Below are positions 9,142 to 20,526 of a stretch of 20,621 nt of DNA, one piece after another. The notes below the pieces were generated by a model. That model worked only from the letters and a program-made list of their open reading frames with translations. It was not told the DNA's origin and made no database searches. A program made the translations under genes and the position numbers. Every line of letters begins with the position of its first letter. Position 1 is the stretch's first letter. The stretch is from a virus, in IMG/VR virus record IMGVR_UViG_3300007541_000306, positions 1 to 20,621 of that record; one strand, given 5' to 3'.

Positions 9142-9368
9142 ACACCACGCCTCCTTTCGTAGCGTTCAGCAAAGTAGACGCAGCGTTTGCAGGCACGATT
9201 ATCGCCCTCTTCGTCTACTTCCCAATGTGAGTCGCCAACGATGACCATGCCACAGAAGGAAGCGTCGCCCTCCAGCACAGAACCATCGCTACGCCTGAGA
9301 ATCAGGTGGTGGGGCTTGGCGCCTTTTCGACGACCAACCCAGTGAATCTTAGCGTACTTCTCACTCAT
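9132..9368 (-). CDS. Hypothetical 78-aa protein with CxxC
   Basis: The frame from ATG 9368 (MSEKYAKIHWVGRRKG) to TAA at 9132-9134 overlaps the primase end by 8 bases and the XPF start by 10. GGAGGAGG at 9378-9385 lies nine bases before the ATG. The N-terminal half is basic with alternating hydrophobics (KPHHLILRRSDG), the middle holds FCGMVIVGDSHWEVDEEGD, and a C-terminal ACKRC is followed by YFAERYERRR. The three Cys (one single, one pair) with nearby His could make a metal site. It is probably a small nucleic-acid-binding protein, but no family is recognisable. Confidence 0.6.
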   Translation of the reverse strand: MSEKYAKIHWVGRRKGAKPHHLILRRSDGSVLEGDASFCGMVIVGDSHWEVDEEGDNRACKRCVYFAERYERRRGVWR

Positions 9369-10473
9369 CCACAACCGCCTCCTCCATCGCACCAGTCTTG
9401 TCCCAGTATCGACACTTTCCAAGGCACATACCTTTCTTGTGAAGCATCGAGCACGTTTGAGGGTATTCCGTACCCACGATGGTGCCGACTTGGTATCGGG
9501 TCGTGGCTTCATCAAAATCTGCCCAGTCGAGGCCGCTGATGAATTGCACGATTGTTTCGCCGTGTTCTGCCAACTTTGAGCGGTCGATTCGCTCAACCGG
9601 CATGAAGTTGCGTAGTCGTTTAGAGAGGTACTTGACCAACTGGACGCGAGCGTCGTGGCTTGGGTTGCTGCCGACTCGACAGGCGGCCGAGTTTAGGCAA
9701 GGGAGAATGATAATGCCGTCCATAGACGCTGTTGGCAGGTCGATGGGCTTTGAGTTGGGGTCAAATACGCGAGAGCGTTGCTTGGTGCGCACGACGTCCA
9801 GCGACACCCCCTTGGTCCCGTAAGCGAACATGCCAGACTTGGACTCCAGTGCCTCGACCATGATGTGGTCCAGCCCTGCTTCCAAGTCGGAGGTTTTCAG
9901 CGGTATGGACCAGAGTCCGCGTTTGGAGTTGTACGAGTTCGGGAGCCGAATCATACCGCTCGTGTCGAACGGCACTGCAGGGTCTGAGCAAAACAGGTTC
10001 ATCTCGTGAATCCACTTGCTGATAAGTGACATACCTGCTTCCTTGACATCAGACAGATGGTTGCCGTCAGCGGGCATGTAGGGTTTGTCCAGCATGACCC
10101 AGACGTGGAAGCCACCACCGCTGTACCAGACGGCGTGTGCGATGTCTTCCTTGAGCAGGTGCTTATGCAGCGTGAGGGTCTGACGCAGGGCCTTCTCAGG
10201 GTTGACGTCTGGCCTGTCCCGCTGCCTGAAGTCCTTGGGGTCAAAGTCCATCACGAAGTGACGGACGATGGGCGTGGTCAGGTCGACGCGCCTATTGTGT
10301 GGCTGCTGCAGGGCTCGGTAGCCGTAGACGGTCATGTAGGCGTTGGACACTCCGTCCTTGCCAGACCAGTAGCGCTCCAACTCCTCATCTGTACGAACCA
10401 GTTTTCGGAATCCCCTACCCTTCTCATTCCCAAGTTCCATTACTTCTCGTGGGAAATCGAAGACCAGACGCAC
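9361..10473 (-). CDS. Archaeo-eukaryotic primase with PriL-like Fe-S C-terminus
   Basis: 370 aa. The catalytic AEP core shows D76-x-D78 (FVMDFDPKD), SGGGFH (118-123), a third acidic residue D170 (PFD), and R176-LPNSYNSKRG, the conserved basic motif of PriS-type primases. The C-terminal ~110 residues have a Cys pattern, C259 (ILPCLN), C341 (PQTC), C350 and C354 (GMCLGKC), that fits the 4Fe-4S domain of the primase large subunit PriL. The protein therefore appears to join small-subunit catalysis and large-subunit product control in one chain, as in some archaeal plasmid primases. It makes primers for the viral PolB. The GTG start (10473) is one base after the previous stop; ATG at 10440 is a weaker alternative because it would remove the N-terminal strand. 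Confidence 0.9.
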   Translation of the reverse strand: MRLVFDFPREVMELGNEKGRGFRKLVRTDEELERYWSGKDGVSNAYMTVYGYRALQQPHNRRVDLTTPIVRHFVMDFDPKDFRQRDRPDVNPEKALRQTLTLHKHLLKEDIAHAVWYSGGGFHVWVMLDKPYMPADGNHLSDVKEAGMSLISKWIHEMNLFCSDPAVPFDTSGMIRLPNSYNSKRGLWSIPLKTSDLEAGLDHIMVEALESKSGMFAYGTKGVSLDVVRTKQRSRVFDPNSKPIDLPTASMDGIIILPCLNSAACRVGSNPSHDARVQLVKYLSKRLRNFMPVERIDRSKLAEHGETIVQFISGLDWADFDEATTRYQVGTIVGTEYPQTCSMLHKKGMCLGKCRYWDKTGAMEEAVVDE

Positions 10474-11952: not shown

Positions 11953-12146
11953 GCTTTTTCCTCCTTTTCAAGGTCACGGATGAGTCTTTCAAGGTAGACA
12001 GCGAGGTCCATAGCCTCCTCTTGAGCATGGCGCAGCCATTCGATGTGGGTGAGGTCCTTGCGCTCCATCGTCTTGCCATATTTGTGCCATCCGAGGTCAG
12101 CACGCTGGCGAATCTTACGGACGACTTCTTCTTCGATTTTGCTCAT
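11949..12146 (-). CDS. MazG-like helical protein (65 aa)
   Basis: Nearly all helical. The segment RADLGWHKYGKTMERKDL, followed by IEWLRHAQEEAMDLAVYL, matches the short phage proteins usually linked to the all-alpha NTP pyrophosphohydrolase (MazG/dUTPase-like) superfamily: a 'G..KYG' loop and an EExxD metal motif (E43, E44, D47). At 65 aa it is about half the size of an active MazG domain, so it may work as a dimer or have lost activity. It overlaps PolB by ATGA, with GAGGTGA four bases before its ATG. It may tune nucleotide pools, but this is inference. Confidence 0.7.
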   Translation of the reverse strand: MSKIEEEVVRKIRQRADLGWHKYGKTMERKDLTHIEWLRHAQEEAMDLAVYLERLIRDLEKEEKA

Positions 12147-14482
12147 TCAATCACCTCAAAGTAGTTCTTGGGGCGGGCGGCGCCAGAAGCGGCTGCCAAG
12201 TCCCAGTCGAGTGCCGTGAAAATGGGCTTCAGTTTAGCCTTGAGCAACTTGTCCACCATCAAATCGACGTCCAGTTCGTAGCCGTCTAAATCAGATTCGT
12301 CGACGAAAGCCATGACGTCCGTGCGGTTGTCGCGAACGTAGACCCAGTCCACGCTCTGGTCCTTGAAGAACTTCGGCTCGACGGTTCTGTTATAGTAGAG
12401 GGCAGCCTTGATGCCTCCTCCAACCTTAGAATACTGTTCTGGGTGCTTCTGCAGTCGGGTGGTCGAAGCCACTTCCTTGAGGTCGAAATCGCTGCTCAGA
12501 ATGCGCTTGGCCAGTGGACGGACCATAGAGATGACTTGCTCTTCGCTCGCTCCTCGACAAATGGCGGTGAGAACGTCGTTCTCAAGCGTCATTGAGATAG
12601 GAGCGAGTGTGCTGATTTTACCCCAGCGTGCGCTCTTGACCTTACCTTCGTCTTCAGGTGGCCACGAACAGATGCCGTAGTAGAGGTTCTTCCCACCGAC
12701 AATCCAGTAGGGCATGTAGGCCTCAAACTCTACGATGAGGTCCTTGGCGTTGAGGCGCTGTTGCACGGTTGTCGTGAGGTGCTTTGCCAGTGCCCCTGCT
12801 TCGTCGTAGGGGACCTGTACGAATGCCGAATCGGTGTGCCCGTAGAGGGGTGCGTAGCCCTGCGCCTTTGACTCCTCAAGGAGGAAACGAATGGCTTGTC
12901 GACCGACCGAAGTAATGGCGCTGGCGATGTCGAAATCACACCAACCCCAGTGAGCGCTGGCCGTCATCCCGTAGAAAGAAGCCATCACACGCTTGACCGC
13001 CAACTGCATGGTGTTCCATCCGCTGCGCTCGCGCTCGCTTTCCGATTCGCGCATCTTACGCTTATACAGGTCACGTAGGTCGAACATCTCGGTGACGATG
13101 CGGGGAAGAAGTGCGTCGACGCCCTGCCTCCAGCAAGTGCCGTCCGGCAGTCGATGCACGTTGTCCTCATTCGCTTGGTCGGGGTGCACCTGCGTTTCCC
13201 AAGACAGGTTGTGGCTAAGGATGATGCTGGGGTACAGACCCTTGTAGTCAACGCAGGCCACGCCCTCGTATCGTCCGGGCCGAGGAGGGGGGATGAACGC
13301 GCCCTCGTACTCCTGTTTCTCCTGCTGAGAACGGGTGGGTGCCTTCCAATCGGTCCTGCGACTGAGTAGGCCGCGCGCAAACCGCGTGACGTTGTGGCAG
13401 GAAGGGAACGTGACGCCGCACAGTCGCTGCAGAGAGAAGAAGAAGTCGAGGACGTGGTTGTCTTCGTCGATGCGCTTCAACAGCACCGTGTCCTGCATAC
13501 AGTAGTCCACGTAGTCGTCGAAGCGCTCCGTCCACCCAGTGAACACGTCCATGTCGAACTTGCCGCCGAGGCCACAGGCTTCCGCCAGCGTGTCTAATTT
13601 GAGGTTCTTCAGTTGGGGTTTGCCGCTGTCTTTCCAGACGCGCTCAAATCCGCTGCCACTGTTGAGCGGGGAGGCCGTATCGAAGCACAGTCGCCCACGG
13701 ATTGGTTGGTCCGTGTAGTCGTAACCTTTCTTGGTGCCAAGCACCCGGCCAAGCGGGCTGAGGCGCCTGAACTGCTTTAGCCGCTCCGTCAAGTGCGGTA
13801 GGTCAGCCCACATCATGGAGTGGGCCACAAGCACGTCGGGGTTGCACTCCTCCAAATAAGCGAGGAAGGCCCTGTGCATGTCCGATTCTGAGCCGTACAG
13901 ATGGCGTTCGTAGGTGTAGTCGACTTTCTCACCGCGCACCTCGTAATCGACCTCACGGACCTCGATGTGGTGGTCCATGTCGTAGAGGCCGTTGGGGTTA
14001 TCTTTCTTCCAGCAGAAGGCAACTCGCCTTCGATTGAAACTGTCCACCACGGCCATGACCGTGGTCTCCTTGGTCTTCGGGTCCCACTCCAAGTCGAAGT
14101 GCCAGACGCGAGGCGTCCAGTCAGGCATCGTCTGGTAGGTGTCCATGAGGTAGCGGTCTGCGAGGCTGAGGTCAGCCTCCCACGTCTTCCAAAAGCGAGC
14201 AGCCATGCTCCTGATGTCGCTCTCACGGTAGGCGTAGACCTTGATGAGTGGCTCGTTGTCGCGCAGCCCTACGGCTGTGTCGTCGTAGTCGACCTCGGAG
14301 CCGTAAAAGGAGTCGAGCACGTTGTCGATGATGCGTTTTGGGGTGTTGGCTGAAATCCAGAAGTAGGGCCTGAAGTCGGTCACGGTGTCTTCGATGAGGT
14401 TTCCGTCCTTGTCGCGCCACCTCAGGTAAAGGTGGTCGGGACCCTCAGGGTCCGGTCGGAACGCATCGACAATCACCGTCAT
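12143..14482 (-). CDS. polB: Family B DNA polymerase
   Basis: Replicative polymerase, 779 aa. The proofreading domain has D130-x-E132 (HFDLEWDP), Exo II around H221-D227 (AHSMMWAD, with His where Asn is usual) and Y327-xxx-D331 (YCMQD). The polymerase domain has motif A D412-YKGLYPSI, motif B K497-RVMASFYG (Ala501 where Asn is usual) and motif C YGHTDS (547-552; catalytic D551 kept, first Asp replaced by His549), then the GGKNLYYG equivalent of the KxY motif (596-603). It acts with the clamp, clamp loader and primase encoded beside it. ATG 14482 overlaps the upstream stop (ATGA) but GGAGG lies only one base away; GTG 14476, seven bases from GGAGG, would shorten the protein by two residues. 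Confidence 0.97.
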   Translation of the reverse strand: MTVIVDAFRPDPEGPDHLYLRWRDKDGNLIEDTVTDFRPYFWISANTPKRIIDNVLDSFYGSEVDYDDTAVGLRDNEPLIKVYAYRESDIRSMAARFWKTWEADLSLADRYLMDTYQTMPDWTPRVWHFDLEWDPKTKETTVMAVVDSFNRRRVAFCWKKDNPNGLYDMDHHIEVREVDYEVRGEKVDYTYERHLYGSESDMHRAFLAYLEECNPDVLVAHSMMWADLPHLTERLKQFRRLSPLGRVLGTKKGYDYTDQPIRGRLCFDTASPLNSGSGFERVWKDSGKPQLKNLKLDTLAEACGLGGKFDMDVFTGWTERFDDYVDYCMQDTVLLKRIDEDNHVLDFFFSLQRLCGVTFPSCHNVTRFARGLLSRRTDWKAPTRSQQEKQEYEGAFIPPPRPGRYEGVACVDYKGLYPSIILSHNLSWETQVHPDQANEDNVHRLPDGTCWRQGVDALLPRIVTEMFDLRDLYKRKMRESESERERSGWNTMQLAVKRVMASFYGMTASAHWGWCDFDIASAITSVGRQAIRFLLEESKAQGYAPLYGHTDSAFVQVPYDEAGALAKHLTTTVQQRLNAKDLIVEFEAYMPYWIVGGKNLYYGICSWPPEDEGKVKSARWGKISTLAPISMTLENDVLTAICRGASEEQVISMVRPLAKRILSSDFDLKEVASTTRLQKHPEQYSKVGGGIKAALYYNRTVEPKFFKDQSVDWVYVRDNRTDVMAFVDESDLDGYELDVDLMVDKLLKAKLKPIFTALDWDLAAASGAARPKNYFEVIE

Positions 14483-14645: not shown

Positions 14646-15407
14646 TCAATCCTCCTCGTCCACTTGGTCGATAACGACCATGAGGAAATGCGTGTGCTCT
14701 TGTTCAATGACCATCACCGTGTCGTCTCCAGTGTGGATGTCCACGTCACCCGAAGGTAGGCTGTTGAGCAGTTCAGGAAGCCACTTGTCGAAGGCCGAGG
14801 ATGCCGTGACGGCGGGGCCTTCGACGTTGGTGAGTGGGGCGTTGACGAACATCTTACCTGTCGAGTCCTTCCCGCCGCGAATCGTCAACTGCGAGCCGTC
14901 TGCGTCAAACTCAGTTCGGCACGAGTAATTGTCGCCGAGCACCTTCTTGAAGTGCGTAGCAGGCTTGAGCGCCTCCGACGCCACCCGTGCATGGTGAGTG
15001 AGTGGTGTGTTGAACCACGTCCGCCACATGCCCTCCTTGGATGTCTCAATGGCTCGCTCCATCATCCCCACGCGCTTCTGCGATTCGACGTAGGACGCCG
15101 TGGGTAACTTGAGGCTGACTTTCTCACCCGACAGGTGGAGGGTGCCATTCTTCCCTTCTTGGCTCACGTCGAGGCTGGACACCTTCGTGCTGCTGAGGAA
15201 CTTCTTGACCTTTGGTAAGTCTGTGATGCTGATGTGACCCGTCTTGGTCACCCCGCAGTCCATCTTCCGCGACACGTAGTGCGTGGTCTTCCCGACCGAA
15301 GCCGATATGTGGTCACTGCCCACTTTGATGGCGATGTCCTGAAGGTCTGCCCCGAACGAGTCAAGGAAGTTCGTCAGGTTATCGCGGCTGATGCTGAAGG
15401 ATGCCAT
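14646..15407 (-). CDS. PCNA-like sliding clamp (divergent)
   Basis: 253 aa, the usual length of an archaeal PCNA monomer (about 245-250). The sequence alternates strands and short helices in a two-domain pattern: an N-terminal helix (NLTNFLDSFG), a mid-chain run of strands (SSLDVSQEGKNGTLHLSG, KVSLKLPT), and a C-terminal block (FDKWLPELLNSLPSGDVDI, TVMVIEQEHTHFLMVVIDQ) that mirrors PCNA's last helix, strands and 'P' motif. Identity to PCNA is low by eye, so the call rests mainly on length, fold pattern and its position between clamp loader and polymerase. GAGGTG lies five bases before ATG 15407. Clamps hold PolB on DNA and recruit partners through PIP boxes, and a PIP-box candidate lies downstream in the block. 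Confidence 0.6.
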   Translation of the reverse strand: MASFSISRDNLTNFLDSFGADLQDIAIKVGSDHISASVGKTTHYVSRKMDCGVTKTGHISITDLPKVKKFLSSTKVSSLDVSQEGKNGTLHLSGEKVSLKLPTASYVESQKRVGMMERAIETSKEGMWRTWFNTPLTHHARVASEALKPATHFKKVLGDNYSCRTEFDADGSQLTIRGGKDSTGKMFVNAPLTNVEGPAVTASSAFDKWLPELLNSLPSGDVDIHTGDDTVMVIEQEHTHFLMVVIDQVDEED

Positions 15408-16466: not shown

Positions 16467-17719
16467 TCTTGGTTCCCTCCGAATTGGCTCAGGCTCGTGT
16501 CGCCACTGCCCCCAGCGGGACGGGCGGTACGAGGCGGAATGTAGATGCCGAGCGCCGTGAGGCTCGCCTGCATCTCGTTGTTGTACGGCTTCAGGCGCAG
16601 GCGACCGACGACGATGACCTGTGTCTTTTCGTCGTACTGTCGCATCTCACCGTTACGGTCACGGTACTCAAAGACACGGTCTTCATCGTGCATGCGACCA
16701 GAGACCCAGACGGTCACGGGGTCAACGCCCTGACGTGCGATGGACAGCCGATACGTTCGCCCTGTGGGGTCGTACTCACTGCTCATGTGGTCACGATTCA
16801 GGTAGGTGACGTAGCCGCTCGTGATGACGAGGGGGTTGACGGTGTAGCCGGACGCGGTTGTGACCGTGCGGTCACCGTGGACTTCCACGAGTTCGCCGAG
16901 TTCGGCGTATTCGTGGTGCATCTTCGCGTTCACGAGGAGGCGCTCGGCGCTGAATGCCTGACGCAGATGTTCAGGAAGCCAAGCGTCCGTGTACTCAACC
17001 GTCTCGTGGAAGTTGCGATTGGTGTAGAGCAGGTCTTGGTCGCTCCGCGTGGGGGCGATGACCTGAATCTTGCACGCTTCCCACTTGGTGTACGTCGCCT
17101 TCATGGCGTCGCCCTGCAAATTGATGCTCCACGCCTTGATGTCGCCACCCGATTCGGGGCTGCCAAGGAAGTATGCCTTGCGACTGAAACTCGTGGGCGC
17201 CATGGGCTTGCGCTCGCCGTCACGGTTGGCCATGAGGCAAAGGAGCATGTCGTCGTTCTCAAAGCCGTACCACGGCAGGTCACTTCCCTTGACGCGGTCC
17301 TCGGTGGGCTGACCGTTGATGTGCCACAGACCCTCCTTGGCCGTCAGGATGCCGATGAGGCCTTCGTCGATGGCTCGGTCGCGGTTGTTTCGGAACATGG
17401 TGAGGGCATTGTCGAAGACGCCCTTCCGCCCGTCACGCTCGCTGTCTTCGATGCCGATGAACATACCGACATAGGTCACCGTGTCGCGGCTGCTTCCGCC
17501 GCCGCCGACATTGTTTCGGTCTTCAATGACGAATTGCTCGGACCACTGGCTGAGGTAGAAGGGGTCCTCGCTGTGCGGGGCATCCACTTCAAACTCAGCC
17601 TTGAGCCACTTGGCGAAGCGGGCTCCAGCCTCTTCAAGGCTGATGCCATGCTTCCCCGCATAGCCTGTCAGGCGTTCGGTCACATCTTCGGGCCACGTTT
17701 TTTCTGGGGTATCGGTCAT
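16463..17719 (-). CDS. OB-fold ssDNA-binding protein (RPA-like), putative
   Basis: 418 aa, beta-rich with no enzyme motif. The C-terminal half (from about residue 270) has two strand-dense segments, DRTVTTASGYTVNPLVITSG and a run ending VIVVGRLRLKPYNNEM, as in OB folds with the typical 'v.v.G.l....' closing strands. An N-terminal helix pair is followed by another OB-like segment (YVGMFIGIEDSERDG). The tail is Gly/Ser-rich and flexible (PAGGSGDTSLSQFGGNQE), as in many ssDNA-binding proteins. Between clamp loader and RadA-like ATPase, an RPA/SSB role is the natural reading, but no zinc finger is present and the family assignment is by eye. ATG 17719 overlaps the RFC stop (ATGA), with GGAGG seven bases upstream. 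Confidence 0.55.
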   Translation of the reverse strand: MTDTPEKTWPEDVTERLTGYAGKHGISLEEAGARFAKWLKAEFEVDAPHSEDPFYLSQWSEQFVIEDRNNVGGGGSSRDTVTYVGMFIGIEDSERDGRKGVFDNALTMFRNNRDRAIDEGLIGILTAKEGLWHINGQPTEDRVKGSDLPWYGFENDDMLLCLMANRDGERKPMAPTSFSRKAYFLGSPESGGDIKAWSINLQGDAMKATYTKWEACKIQVIAPTRSDQDLLYTNRNFHETVEYTDAWLPEHLRQAFSAERLLVNAKMHHEYAELGELVEVHGDRTVTTASGYTVNPLVITSGYVTYLNRDHMSSEYDPTGRTYRLSIARQGVDPVTVWVSGRMHDEDRVFEYRDRNGEMRQYDEKTQVIVVGRLRLKPYNNEMQASLTALGIYIPPRTARPAGGSGDTSLSQFGGNQE

Positions 17720-18657
17720 GTCCTGTCCTCCATGTTTTTCTTCAGTTTCGCTATGAAGTACTCAACGTAGGCGATGTCGTCGTCCGGCCATGAGTGGGCC
17801 AGAAGGGCGAACTCGCCATACGTGAGCATGAACGCGTGCCAGTCATCCTCACTTTCCATGAGGGGCTTCACGCGGTAGCGGAGCCCTTGCAGGACTCCAA
17901 ACCTCGACTGACCAGACTCCAAGGCCTGAGTCAATCGCGCGGTGACTGTGGGGAAATCGCTGCCCATGATACTCAGGGCAGCGCGGTTAAGGTTGTTCGT
18001 GTCCCTGCGAAGGAACTCCATCATGGCGCCTACCTCCTTGGGCAGGCTTTCGAGGGTGTCGATGGCCTTCCGCATGCTTCCTGCGGAGGTCCGCACAAGG
18101 GCTGGCAGGTGCTCTATCCATTCGGAAGGCATGCCTTCCGCTACGATGATGCGGCCCAGTCGGTTAAGGACGCTCGCGTCTGAATCGGACAGGGGCTTGA
18201 AGTGATACGTGACGCATCGGTCACGGATGGCGCTGTGAATCGGACCGATGTCGTTCGCAGTGAGAATGAAGATGGTGCTCTGATGGTTCTCTTCCAAAAT
18301 CTGTCGAAGGGCCTTCTGTGCAGGAGCAGTGAAGGACTCAAACTCGTCGAGGACTTCTCCTCGACGACTGACGCCCATGCCCTTCTGTCGGGCGATGCTC
18401 TTCAAGTCACGCACATAGTCGATGCCTCGGTCGTCTGAGGCGTTGGTGACGCTGTAGTTCATGGGGTCGAAGAACTCACCCTGTAGATTACGGAGGAGTG
18501 CCAAAGCGGCACTGGTCTTGCCCACGCCGGGTGGACCCACGAGGAGAATGTTTGCGGGACAGGTGTCGATGTCCCAACCCTTTGCCGCAGCGAGGAACTC
18601 CTCGCAACCGGCCAAGTCGTCCAAGGAGGACGGTCTGTATTTCTCTCGGAGGTTCAT
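17716..18657 (-). CDS. RFC-type clamp loader subunit (small subunit-like)
   Basis: 313 aa AAA+ ATPase. Motifs in order: EKYRPSSLDDLAG (5-17, the RFC 'YRP' box), Walker A GPPGVGKT (41-48), NASDDRGIDYVR (72-83), Walker B VLDEFES (102-108), sensor 1 ILTAND (131-136), RDRC (145-148, the SRC arginine-finger position with Asp for Ser) and sensor 2 GSMRKAID (193-200). Walker B reads DEFE rather than the usual DEAD. It opens and loads the sliding clamp encoded three genes downstream. No large-subunit partner lies in the window, so the loader may be homomeric or use host or distant viral subunits. AGGTGG is seven bases before the ATG, and a TATA-like box lies 30 bases upstream. Confidence 0.95.
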   Translation of the reverse strand: MNLREKYRPSSLDDLAGCEEFLAAAKGWDIDTCPANILLVGPPGVGKTSAALALLRNLQGEFFDPMNYSVTNASDDRGIDYVRDLKSIARQKGMGVSRRGEVLDEFESFTAPAQKALRQILEENHQSTIFILTANDIGPIHSAIRDRCVTYHFKPLSDSDASVLNRLGRIIVAEGMPSEWIEHLPALVRTSAGSMRKAIDTLESLPKEVGAMMEFLRRDTNNLNRAALSIMGSDFPTVTARLTQALESGQSRFGVLQGLRYRVKPLMESEDDWHAFMLTYGEFALLAHSWPDDDIAYVEYFIAKLKKNMEDRT

Positions 18658-18705: not shown

Positions 18706-20160
18706 TCAGTTGGCCATTTCGATGAGGTCAGTCAACTGGGAGACGTCAGAATACCCAAGGTTGTCGTCTGCGTACAGAATGTCCGCATCAGTCATCTTGA
18801 GTTCGGTTAAGGAGAAGCCCTTCATCTCCAGCACGACGACGACGCCGTACTCGTCGACTGGGAGCCAACCCTGTCCTACCAGCAAACCCTGCTGAGCAAG
18901 GCGCTGACGAACGTGCTGGGCCACGGAGGCACTTAACTTGGCCTGCCCGACCTCGTAGACCTCATACCCATCGAGGGATGAGAGGCGCACGAATGTCTCG
19001 TAATCAGTGTCCCGCATGATTGAGGACACGAGGAGTTGGATGTGGAAAGCGTCCTTGAGGATGGTCCAGCCGCCCTCACCGCCAAGGAGGATGCCTCCCG
19101 GCTTGACGAGGCGCATCTTCTCACCGGCCTCAAGGGCTTCAACGTAGTTCGTGTAGTCGGTGCCTGAAGGCACGAACTTCCCCTCCTTGACCGGCACAAT
19201 CGGACTGAGGCCGGCGAGGGCATTTAAGCGGTCACGGTAGTCCTCCTTGTAGAGGTCCCAGTTGTCGTCCACGGACAGCAAGTCGGTGACGTGCGTCACT
19301 TCGATGCCATCAACCTCGACCTCGACAATGGCTTCGTGGCCGGTGAACGGCAAGGTGAGAGGTTTGCCCATCACCTGCTTGTGCCGGTTATACAGGACGC
19401 CTCGGAAGGTGCCTGTCGGGAACTCGGTGATGTGGAGGTAGCGTCGCGGATTCGCCATGACGTCGACGTAGACATCAGAAGGAGTAGTCATCCTGTCCCA
19501 CGCCTTGAACACAGGGCCAAGGAACGGCTGGCCGGGCTGCATGGTGCGAACCTCCATGTCTGGTTTGTCGCCCAGCATCCGCTGCAGAATCTCAGCAGGA
19601 CGCATGGTTTCCAGCATCGCGCTGATGGATTGCAGGCTCTGTGCACCACGAAGCGTGGTGTAGGAAACCATCTGTAGGAATCGTTTCACAGGAAGGGGTG
19701 GGCGTTCTCCGGTGGCCCGCGCCCAGAAGAGGAGGGCCTCTCGCTCGTTGAGGCGTGTGGCAATCTTCAGGAAGCCGTCGTCGCGAATCCGACCCATGAG
19801 GTTCAGGGCCTGCTTGACGGTCATGCCCTCACCGCCAAACTCAGGCGACTCCAGTGCCAACAGTGGCACCATAGGCTTGCCTGCCAGCGCCTCGTCCCAG
19901 ACGAGGGGTGAGATGGACAATTTCTTGCAGACGTCGTCCCTCAGTTCCCTGAACGAAACGAACTGCCTTGGGAAGCGCGAGTGCTCAGGGTAGAGCACGT
20001 CAATGAGTTGCTCAAGGTCTTCCTCGGCGTTGCGTACAGCGCCCTCGACCGTGTCGAGGCAGAACCGGAAGTGCGTGGAGCGATTCTCAGCGTCGCGCAG
20101 GTAGTCCCTGTAGTAGGAGCGCAGGGCCTCCGACACCTTGGCTGCATCAGCCAGTAGCAT
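18706..20160 (-). CDS. ATP-dependent DNA-ligase-like protein, catalytic Lys not evident
   Basis: 484 aa. The N-terminal ~200 residues are helical, like the DNA-binding domain of archaeal ATP ligases (FWARATGERPPLPVKRFLQM). The next part follows ligase order: ITEFPTGTFRGVL (244-256) where motif I (E-K-x-D-G-x-R) should lie, HVTDLLSVDDNWDLYKEDYR (290-309) like motif III with its RR helix, KPGG (353-356) near motif IV, and GGWTILKD (363-370) like motif V. A C-terminal OB-like part follows. The nucleotide-binding Lys is missing (Phe246), so it may be inactive or the assignment may be wrong. ATG 20160 is preferred over GTG 20178 because GGAGG (20167-20171) lies six bases before it. It is probably a replication protein in any case. 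Confidence 0.45.
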   Translation of the reverse strand: MLLADAAKVSEALRSYYRDYLRDAENRSTHFRFCLDTVEGAVRNAEEDLEQLIDVLYPEHSRFPRQFVSFRELRDDVCKKLSISPLVWDEALAGKPMVPLLALESPEFGGEGMTVKQALNLMGRIRDDGFLKIATRLNEREALLFWARATGERPPLPVKRFLQMVSYTTLRGAQSLQSISAMLETMRPAEILQRMLGDKPDMEVRTMQPGQPFLGPVFKAWDRMTTPSDVYVDVMANPRRYLHITEFPTGTFRGVLYNRHKQVMGKPLTLPFTGHEAIVEVEVDGIEVTHVTDLLSVDDNWDLYKEDYRDRLNALAGLSPIVPVKEGKFVPSGTDYTNYVEALEAGEKMRLVKPGGILLGGEGGWTILKDAFHIQLLVSSIMRDTDYETFVRLSSLDGYEVYEVGQAKLSASVAQHVRQRLAQQGLLVGQGWLPVDEYGVVVVLEMKGFSLTELKMTDADILYADDNLGYSDVSQLTDLIEMAN

Positions 20161-20413
20161 CAGACCCCTCCAGTTCACGGAGGGTATGCTGCAGAGCCTT
20201 CACGAGCGAAGCCACGTCCTCAAGGTCAAGCCTCACGCCCTCCCGCGTGAAGCCTTCTCCTTTGGGATGCTCGGCGGTCCTTTGGACACGGATGTCGATT
20301 TTGGGCGGGTCGCGTCGACCGGGGACGGTCACGACCTTCATCACCACCTCGGCCTTGCCGCGCCACTTGGACGCAGATGCAGGGACGCGCCAGACGATTC
20401 GCTCGCTGAACAT
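20147..20413 (-). CDS. Small PC4-like protein (88 aa), putative ssDNA binder
   Basis: ATG 20413 is chosen because GGAGG (20421-20425) lies seven bases upstream; the longer frame from TTG 20437 has no such site. The C-terminal half, PKIDIRVQRT then GEGFTREGVRLDLEDVASL and a long helix, resembles the PC4/Sub1 ssDNA-binding fold ('vdiR.y....g...tkkGi.L..eqw..L'). The N-terminus is basic with strands (RIVWRVP, KWRGKAEVVMKVV). The call is by eye and weak; T5-type phages are known to carry such proteins. It overlaps the ligase-like gene by 14 bases. Confidence 0.55.
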   Translation of the reverse strand: MFSERIVWRVPASASKWRGKAEVVMKVVTVPGRRDPPKIDIRVQRTAEHPKGEGFTREGVRLDLEDVASLVKALQHTLRELEGSDATG

Positions 20414-20415
20414 GC

Positions 20416-20526
20416 TCATGCCTCCGTGAACTCCCAATAGATGTACTCGTCTGTTTCAATGACCGCCTTCATGTGCGGGTGGTTGCACGAACACCACACG
20501 TTCTCACACTTGGGTCCGTGCGTCAT
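20416..20526 (-). CDS. 36-aa Cys/His-rich ORF
   Basis: ATG 20526 overlaps the upstream stop (ATGA), with GAGGTGA four bases before it. The peptide has C7, C12 and C14 followed by H16 and H18 (CENVWCSCNHPH), a compact set that could bind zinc, then an acidic/aromatic tail (DEYIYWEF). Its stop lies two bases before the next ATG, and its GAG GCA codons supply that gene's Shine-Dalgarno. Too short for the usual gene finders, but the context argues for translation. Function unknown. Confidence 0.55.
   Translation of the reverse strand: MTHGPKCENVWCSCNHPHMKAVIETDEYIYWEFTEA

What the first reader, a model, noticed from the sequence alone, without database searches (positions are those of the whole stretch)
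18706..20160. Ligase-like protein without the motif I lysine
Motif order resembles ATP-dependent DNA ligases (helical N-domain, motif III-like and V-like segments, C-terminal part), but the position of the catalytic Lys is Phe246 in ITEFPTG. It may be a pseudo-ligase with a structural or nick-binding role, or a new family.
Basis: inference. Interest (0 to 1): 0.5.

Follow-up and report, generated by a model that had tools for sequence, protein, structure and literature searches.

The report
Lysine-less DNA ligase in ocean archaeal viruses
This virus gene, thought to belong to viruses of abundant ocean archaea, encodes a protein predicted to fold like a DNA-joining enzyme but without the amino acid that does the joining, and its conservation beside the virus's DNA-copying genes suggests that it was kept for another job.

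Summary
The window is a magrovirus-like replication module. The gene at 20160-18706 (minus strand, 484 aa) is real: phmmer finds it at 51 further loci, mostly directly upstream of the clamp-loader gene, under purifying selection (median dN/dS 0.05). Pfam, PHROGs, NCBIfam and PDB sequence searches do not recognise it. The AlphaFold model's best matches are ATP-dependent DNA ligases (Foldseek E 1e-9; VIA-align Z 14-16), with helical, nucleotidyltransferase and OB parts in ligase order.
Motif VI basic residues are lost too (0 of 40). Several pocket acids and arginines persist.
Two side results: the only Pfam-detectable ATP-dependent ligase domain in 47 related records lies in a ~1900-aa protein, beside capsid genes in the two cases examined, with Met at the lysine position (30 of 30). 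Poseidoniales, the reported hosts, lack ATP-dependent ligase (0 of 96) but have NAD+-dependent LigA (95 of 96).
Best reading: a dead ligase kept as a DNA-binding or scaffold part of the viral replisome. That role is inferred.

The parts
18706..20160 (-). pseudo-ligase gene, 484 aa plus stop
   Evidence: open frame; 51 further loci; AF2 model and fold search
19561..20160 (-). helical N-terminal part, residues 1-200, where ligases have their DNA-binding domain
   Evidence: 13 helices at residues 3-196 and no strand of 3 or more; 44 of the 50 VIA rows, all DNA ligases or NHEJ ligation complexes, are aligned from residue 1
19045..19554 (-). nucleotidyltransferase-like domain, residues 203-372
   Evidence: matches DNA ligase III domain 10ye_L, 160 residues at 2.7 A, Z 15.6
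19456..19458 (-). codon 235, the motif I lysine position: Met here, Ile/Met/Val/Leu in relatives
   Evidence: 40-sequence column count; strand boundaries
   Evidence: 40 of 40 Phe
19315..19323 (-). residues 280-282 (E-V-E), proposed counterpart of motif III DGE
   Evidence: E280 and E282 40 of 40; placement by strand order
18709..19038 (-). OB-like C-terminal part, residues 375-484
   Evidence: strands between 377 and 465, one helix among them, then a last helix; few fold rows cover it
18760..18771 (-). residues 464-467 (A-D-D-N), proposed counterpart of motif VI R-x-D-K without its basic residues
   Evidence: no R or K at 464 or 467 in 40; best of the ungapped placements on the archaeal ligase, but 516 of 2000 shuffles score as high
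20147..20437 (-). 96-aa gene that overlaps the start of the pseudo-ligase gene by 14 bases
   Evidence: relatives found for 32 of 35 alignment rows (window included), overlapping the ligase-like gene by 8 or 14 bases in 19 of the 32 and lying 231-2489 bases away in 13
17716..18657 (-). replication factor C small subunit, next gene downstream
   Evidence: AAA and RFC models; distance from the last sense codon -4 to 52 bases in 39 of 51 loci
14646..15407 (-). probable sliding clamp (PCNA-like) of the same module
   Evidence: only a weak PHROG processivity-factor match, E 0.019, and its position
12143..14482 (-). family B DNA polymerase of the same module
   Evidence: Pfam DNA_pol_B 1.6e-32

Best explanation
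It is a descendant of an archaeal or LIG1-type ATP-dependent DNA ligase that can no longer make the lysine-AMP intermediate, kept by magroviruses as a non-catalytic subunit of their replisome. Shown here: the gene, its conservation and its place beside the clamp loader. Shown by prediction: the ligase fold, and on that fold the lost lysine and the lost motif VI basic residues. Inferred: it binds nicked or primer-junction duplex with its three-part clamp, holds or marks that DNA for the viral clamp and polymerase, and leaves sealing to the host's NAD+-dependent LigA.
For: Fold: of 12 Foldseek PDB hits at E 0.001 or better, six are DNA ligases (LIG1 first, 1.1e-9; S. solfataricus ligase 1.6e-8) and six capping enzymes; 49 of 50 VIA rows are DNA ligases or NHEJ ligation complexes, Z 12.9-16.2, and the transferase domain alone fits LIG3 at 2.7 A over 160 residues; in the viral library ranks 1, 2 and 4 are named DNA ligase. 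Lysine loss: position 235 is hydrophobic in 40 of 40, while KxDGxR is found in 30 of 31 archaeal ligase frames, the 31st being a wrong-strand frame (the pattern itself asks for K). Motif VI: no R or K in 40. Retained: acid 233 in 40 of 40, R240 37, R259 36, E280, E282 and D293 40, R311 40. Not decaying: median dN/dS 0.053, highest 0.22. No substitute ligase found: PF01653 in 0 of 20 records, PF09414 in 0 of 19, PF01068 only in the giant frame. Host order: PF01068 0 of 96, PF01653 95 of 96.
Against: Model confidence is moderate (mean pLDDT 77.5, pTM 0.58), Foldseek TM-scores to the best ligases are only 0.23-0.38 with rmsd 11-18 A (ranks 1-5), and VIA rows aligned from residue 1 have rmsd 8.8-15 A: domain placement differs. 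Profile-profile comparison with archaeal ligases is not significant (probability 1.2%; 4.5% or less by domain). Divergence correlates with PCNA 0.958, RFC 0.956 and PolB 0.944, but also with the thermosome, a non-replication gene, at 0.894, so it shows steady common inheritance rather than a specific replisome bond. DNA binding was not tested; no part has a strong net positive charge and the OB part averages -10.5. One 82.7-kb record, G037, has no match, so the gene may not be universal.
Confidence: 0.56

Rival explanations
1. It is still a nucleotidyltransferase, with another residue (invariant K266 or H243) taking the place of the motif I lysine.
For: K266 and H243 are 40 of 40 and lie in or beside the most conserved hairpin; E280, E282 and D293 are kept.
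Against: Motif VI basic residues, needed for the first step in ligases (recalled), are absent in 40 of 40, the residue before D293 is T, N or S, and the motif IV lysine seems lost. K266 lies outside the motif I strand pair.
Confidence: 0.08
2. It works only on ends that are already adenylated, sealing or clearing AMP-DNA left by the host ligase; lysine mutants of ligases can do this (recalled).
For: The third step does not need the motif I lysine (recalled); acids and arginines of the site are kept.
Against: Lysine is present in only 2 of 40 at the likely motif IV position and in 26 of 40 at the motif V position.
Confidence: 0.07
3. It is a regulator or decoy aimed at the host: it binds nicks or LigA to block repair or hide viral DNA from defence.
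For: In the sampled host order only LigA was found; no LigA was found in 20 virus records. Co-inheritance does not single out the replisome.
Against: It sits in the replication operon, next to the clamp loader in 39 of 51 loci, and dN/dS is low, which fits a core part better than an arms-race factor.
Confidence: 0.17
4. It is not ligase-derived: a transferase-OB fold reached from a capping enzyme, or an error of modelling.
For: Six of the 12 best Foldseek hits are capping enzymes (1p16 at 1.1e-6), TM-scores are low, and sequence profiles do not prove ligase ancestry.
Against: The helical N-terminal part also aligns in order with ligases in 44 of 50 VIA rows; capping enzymes lack such a part (recalled).
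Confidence: 0.07

Closest known systems
ATP-dependent DNA ligases, archaeal and eukaryotic LIG1/LIG3/LIG4 type (Pfam PF04675-PF01068-PF04679, accession trio recalled except PF01068)
   Same: Predicted three-part order and folds; acidic residue before the lysine position, motif I arginine, LYxR strand, acidic motif III, IIIa aspartate.
   Different: No motif I lysine, no motif VI R/K, IIIa aromatic lost, no Pfam match; about 30 residues shorter between the lysine position and the IIIa Asp (58 against about 90 in L161, from the sequences).
Ligase-like domain of the magrovirus ~1900-aa protein (L200-L209, alignment A3), apparently the protein annotated in papers as ATP-dependent DNA ligase
   Same: Ligase-type transferase and OB fold, profile match to archaeal ligases at 88.8%, and Met at the lysine position, 30 of 30; same virus group.
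   Different: No helical DNA-binding part in the 286 residues modelled; next to the prohead protease and capsid genes in the two records examined; keeps G-x-R of motif I and a weak PF01068 match.
Inactivated archaeal B-family polymerases (PMC2527604, abstract seen)
   Same: Conserved, apparently inactivated derivative of a replication enzyme, proposed there to play a structural role.
   Different: A polymerase of cellular archaea, proposed to pair with an active paralog; here no active viral ligase was found.
Snurportin-1 cap-binding domain (chain 3gjx_B)
   Same: Transferase-like fold match at Z 12.3, 163 residues, 3.6 A; a non-catalytic user of this fold (recalled).
   Different: Binds an RNA cap in nuclear import (recalled).
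DNA ligase of Halogranum tailed virus 1 (AGM11520.1)
   Same: Archaeal tailed virus, similar length (475 aa), second best viral structure match.
   Different: Keeps the lysine (QRKVDGYR).

Membership tests
ATP-dependent DNA ligase | DNA-binding, nucleotidyltransferase and OB domains in that order | tested here: met
   by predicted structure only; OB part covered by few rows
ATP-dependent DNA ligase | motif I catalytic lysine (KxDGxR) | tested here: not met
   position 235 is I 26, M 7, V 5, L 2 of 40, 39 of them distinct; placement rests on strand order and range anchors, not on coordinates
ATP-dependent DNA ligase | motif III DGE acidic residue | tested here: met
   E280 and E282 in 40 of 40, placed by strand order
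ATP-dependent DNA ligase | motif IIIa aromatic plus Asp | tested here: not met
   D293 40 of 40, but the residue before it is T 34, N 4, S 2
ATP-dependent DNA ligase | motif IV Glu and Lys | tested here: inconclusive
   E347 34 of 40; Lys at 352 in 2 of 40; register uncertain, R350 invariant
ATP-dependent DNA ligase | motif V lysines | tested here: inconclusive
   W365 38 of 40, K369 26 of 40
ATP-dependent DNA ligase | motif VI R-x-D-K | tested here: not met
   D465 40, D466 38, but no R at 464 and no K at 467 in 40
ATP-dependent DNA ligase | match to the Pfam ligase models | tested here: not met
   no ligase family listed for any of 35 members up to E 10, though HMMER's filters drop most matches above 0.1
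ATP-dependent DNA ligase | nick sealing with ATP | not testable with these tools
   needs purified protein
NAD+-dependent DNA ligase (LigA) | adenylation domain PF01653 | tested here: not met
   no Pfam match; no PF01653 in 20 related virus records
mRNA capping guanylyltransferase | motif I lysine, and no helical DNA-binding part (recalled) | tested here: not met
   helical N-terminal part predicted and lysine absent; capping enzymes are nonetheless among the Foldseek hits

The most novel reading that the evidence does not exclude
Magroviruses have no working ligase of their own and have domesticated two dead ones: one as a core replisome clamp on nicks or primer junctions, the other fused into a giant capsid-module protein that handles DNA ends during packaging. 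Sealing of viral Okazaki fragments is handed to a bacterial-type host enzyme, LigA, across an otherwise archaeal-type replisome. The published statement that these viruses encode an ATP-dependent DNA ligase would then be wrong in function.
Probability: 0.33. Interest if true: 0.75.

Novelty: new variant of a known kind. Interest (0 to 1): 0.52.

Why it matters
Apparently dead derivatives of polymerases are known in archaeal replication (PMC2527604, abstract). A conserved dead DNA ligase in a replisome did not appear in the listings of my literature searches, which cover open PubMed Central papers only. It would show the ligase clamp used for shape alone, and it would correct an annotation repeated for a widespread virus group. 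It also makes a clear question testable: who seals nicks when an archaeal-type viral replisome meets a host in which only NAD+-dependent ligase was found.

Tried and rejected
Sequence-only proof of ligase ancestry failed: hhalign of the family against 31 archaeal ligase frames (one, L197, from the wrong strand) gave probability 1.2%, P 0.043, over the IIIa-to-V stretch only; runs by domain and in global mode gave 4.5% or less, and HGTV-1 ligase 0.2%. Ungapped profile placement put the C-terminus on motif VI as first choice, but 516 of 2000 shuffles scored as high; for residues 228-246, 248-262, 274-312 and 340-372 the first choice was not the expected register, with 29 to 442 of 500 shuffles as good. 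So ancestry rests on the predicted structure.

Phe247 as the lysine position was rejected: it lies after strand 2, while motif I joins strands 1 and 2.

Co-inheritance as proof of a replisome bond was weakened by my own control: the thermosome gene gives r 0.894 against 0.944-0.958 for PolB, RFC and PCNA. After it I lowered the best explanation from 0.6 to 0.56 and the novel case from 0.35 to 0.33, and raised the decoy rival from 0.15 to 0.17 and the not-ligase rival from 0.06 to 0.07 (the latter for the low TM-scores).

A possible relative in L074 (406 aa) was aligned at 17%, had no further copy, and its record gave no match to the profile; left out of all counts. An intact lysine motif by DNA pattern gave one hit in 19 records, in a 53-codon frame: chance. 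Annotated phages gave nothing better than E 2 for the window protein, nothing for a distant member and nothing for the giant-protein domain. A profile scan of GTDB genomes confirmed none of 47 candidate stretches. The founding magrovirus paper was not held, so what it says on the ligase is not known to me; ON649702 is not in the collections. PADLOC was not searched.

Rows dropped: A2 uses 35 of the 53 matching ORFs, most of the others near-duplicates; the 40-row counts add L132-L135 and L145 (39 distinct; 22 below 90% identity). A3 uses 30 of 38 loci. Motif counts were not made on all 55 loci. The PF01068 scan covered 47 records of the 78 PolB loci; the PF01653 and PF09414 scans 20 and 19 records. 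In one search three of 14 loci printed no motif. The dN/dS pairs share sequences and are not independent.

Full report
What is there. The window is a 20.6-kb IMG/VR virus record. Its minus strand carries a replication module: PolB, a clamp-loader small subunit, PD-(D/E)XK and ERCC4 nucleases and a thermosome-like chaperonin by clear matches, and by weak matches a sliding clamp, a Sak4-like ATPase and a primase. PolB finds 78 loci in viral contigs, from 41% to 100% identity. This gene set is that described for magroviruses, viruses of the marine archaeal order Poseidoniales (PMC10768690 and PMC12999244, passages seen; PMC10160649, one passage). That the window is a magrovirus is an inference from gene content; the reference genome that I asked for was not held.

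The gene. The frame 20160-18706 encodes 484 aa. phmmer over six-frame ORFs of the fetched loci finds 53 matches, 51 besides the window and its own copy, all at E 1e-57 or better; two of the 51 loci are one contig. The distance to the clamp-loader frame is -4 to 52 bases in 39 of 51 loci and 637 to 1444 bases in the other 12; seven further loci have the clamp loader but no match, four of them with the contig ending inside or just before that gene (contig ends). A profile search of viral contigs gives 55 loci; the same in GTDB genomes confirms none. Of 22 records examined, 20 match (one, G035, only by 25 residues at a contig end); an 82.7-kb record and L074's record do not.

Selection and company. 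Median dN/dS is 0.053 over 35 pairs with dS 0.05-1.5, highest 0.22; the pairs are not independent. Over 27 representatives its pairwise identity (mean 0.58) follows PCNA (r 0.958), RFC (0.956) and PolB (0.944; 0 of 999 permutations). The thermosome gene, a non-replication control, gives 0.894 in 24 of these, and other module genes 0.842-0.939. So the gene is stably inherited with its neighbours and not decaying; the figures do not prove a bond to the replisome.

Fold. None of 35 members is listed with a ligase family in Pfam; PHROGs, NCBIfam and PDB sequences give nothing significant for the window protein. AlphaFold2 on 35 relatives gives mean pLDDT 77.5, pTM 0.58: helices to residue 196, a strand-rich domain at about 203-372, an OB-like part to 465 and a last helix. 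Foldseek in PDB: 12 matches at E 0.001 or better, six DNA ligases and six capping enzymes, LIG1 first at 1.1e-9, but TM-scores of ranks 1-5 are 0.23-0.38. VIA-align: 49 of 50 rows are DNA ligases or NHEJ ligation complexes, Z 12.9-16.2, and 44 of 50 are aligned from model residue 1; their rmsd of 8.8-15 A means that domain placement differs, while the transferase domain alone fits LIG3 at 2.7 A over 160 residues. The fold is predicted, not solved.

The lysine. Motif I (E-x-K-x-D-G-x-R) bridges strands 1 and 2. Here strand 1 is 230-235 and strand 2 is 239-246, giving D/E233-V234-[I/M/V/L]235-x-x-P238-R239-R240 (V234 in 38, P238 in 27 of 40). Position 235 is I 26, M 7, V 5, L 2 in 40 sequences. 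KxDGxR is found in 30 of 31 archaeal ligase frames, the 31st being a wrong-strand frame; the pattern asks for K. Two things support the placement. LIG3 chain 10ye_L (residues 387-594, 208 long) aligns from 387 to model 203, and its DGER motif starts at index 37, so its lysine, two before (recalled KYDGER), is residue 421 and corresponds without gaps to about 237. The giant-protein domain, modelled separately, has the same five-residue spacing from Met52 to Arg57 across the same two strands. Phe247 belongs to TEFPxG, which makes the hairpin between strands 2 and 3 about four residues longer than in L161. Block 241-252 is the most conserved 12-residue block of the protein (0.86 mean identity against 0.58 overall); as a 28-residue window, 239-266 is equalled or beaten by 12 of 457 windows, itself included. 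This is unexpected for a lost active site and suggests that the old active-site face has a new task.

Other motifs, placed by strand order. Kept: acid 233 (40 of 40), R240 (37), R259 of LYNR (36), E280, E282 and D293 (40), R311 (40), E347 (34), W365 (38). Lost: IIIa aromatic, motif VI basic residues (0 of 40), motif V lysine in 14 of 40, and probably motif IV lysine. The only lysine in the transferase domain kept in 80% or more is K266, 40 of 40. Which of these face the pocket could not be seen.

Is there another ligase. PF01068 is found in 14 of 47 related records (5 over its cut-off), always inside a frame of 1803-2013 codons, and in all 14 records of 69 kb or more. In the two cases examined this frame is followed by a prohead protease and a major capsid protein. 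[quoted passage not shown] The domain matches archaeal ligases by profile (88.8%) and folds as a ligase transferase-OB pair (mean pLDDT 66.6), but the lysine position is Met in 30 of 30 aligned sequences, and Phe (L088, L092) or Leu (L091) in three other copies. PF01653 is absent from 20 records and PF09414 from 19. Records may be fragments, so absence is provisional.

The host. In 96 genomes of the order of a Poseidoniales MAG, none has PF01068 and 95 have PF01653. In a sample of the phylum of a Methanolobus MAG 47 of 50 have PF01068, so the search works. The absence is not special to this order: of 11 archaeal MAGs reached by their thermosomes, mostly Thermoplasmata, 7 lack PF01068. The reported hosts therefore appear to seal DNA with bacterial-type LigA.

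Mechanism. Most likely the protein lost adenylation and kept the clamp shape. I propose that it binds nicks, flaps or primer junctions for the viral clamp and polymerase, with host LigA sealing afterwards. The dead-enzyme part I hold at about 0.83; the DNA-binding scaffold part at about 0.5. Net charge neither supports nor excludes DNA binding: the family's parts average -2.8, -3.8 and -10.5, within the span of the archaeal ligases compared.

Literature. Listings for inactive or pseudo DNA ligases and for magrovirus or Poseidoniales ligases showed nothing that describes such a protein. The nearest idea in print that I saw is the inactivated archaeal polymerase family (PMC2527604, abstract). 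Ligase motif names, catalytic roles and the behaviour of lysine mutants are recalled.

Noticed in passing
L081-L094, L200-L209, L214-L251: A ~1900-aa magrovirus protein, beside the prohead protease in the two records examined, carries a second ligase-like domain with Met at the catalytic lysine position (30 of 30 aligned); it appears to be the published 'ATP-dependent DNA ligase' of these viruses.
   Followed up: partly
genomes G048, G059-G153: The order of a Poseidoniales MAG lacks ATP-dependent DNA ligase (PF01068, 0 of 96) and carries NAD+-dependent LigA (PF01653, 95 of 96); some other Thermoplasmata MAGs lack PF01068 too.
   Followed up: partly
window 20147-20437: 96-aa gene overlapping the start of the pseudo-ligase gene; by eye it resembles PC4-type single-strand DNA-binding proteins, but it has no Pfam match.
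   Followed up: partly
window 18718-18741: C-terminal SQLTDLIE is nearly invariant across the family (Q, L, T, D, I and E 40 of 40) in a low-confidence tail; it may be a docking peptide or only the last ligase helix.
   Followed up: partly
L074 2732-3949: 406-aa orphan a short way upstream of the clamp loader in a distant relative; may be a still more reduced ligase-like protein, unproven.
   Followed up: partly
window 9361-10473: Primase-like protein with weak matches to both PriL and PriS/AEP-type models in one frame, perhaps a fused primase.
   Followed up: no
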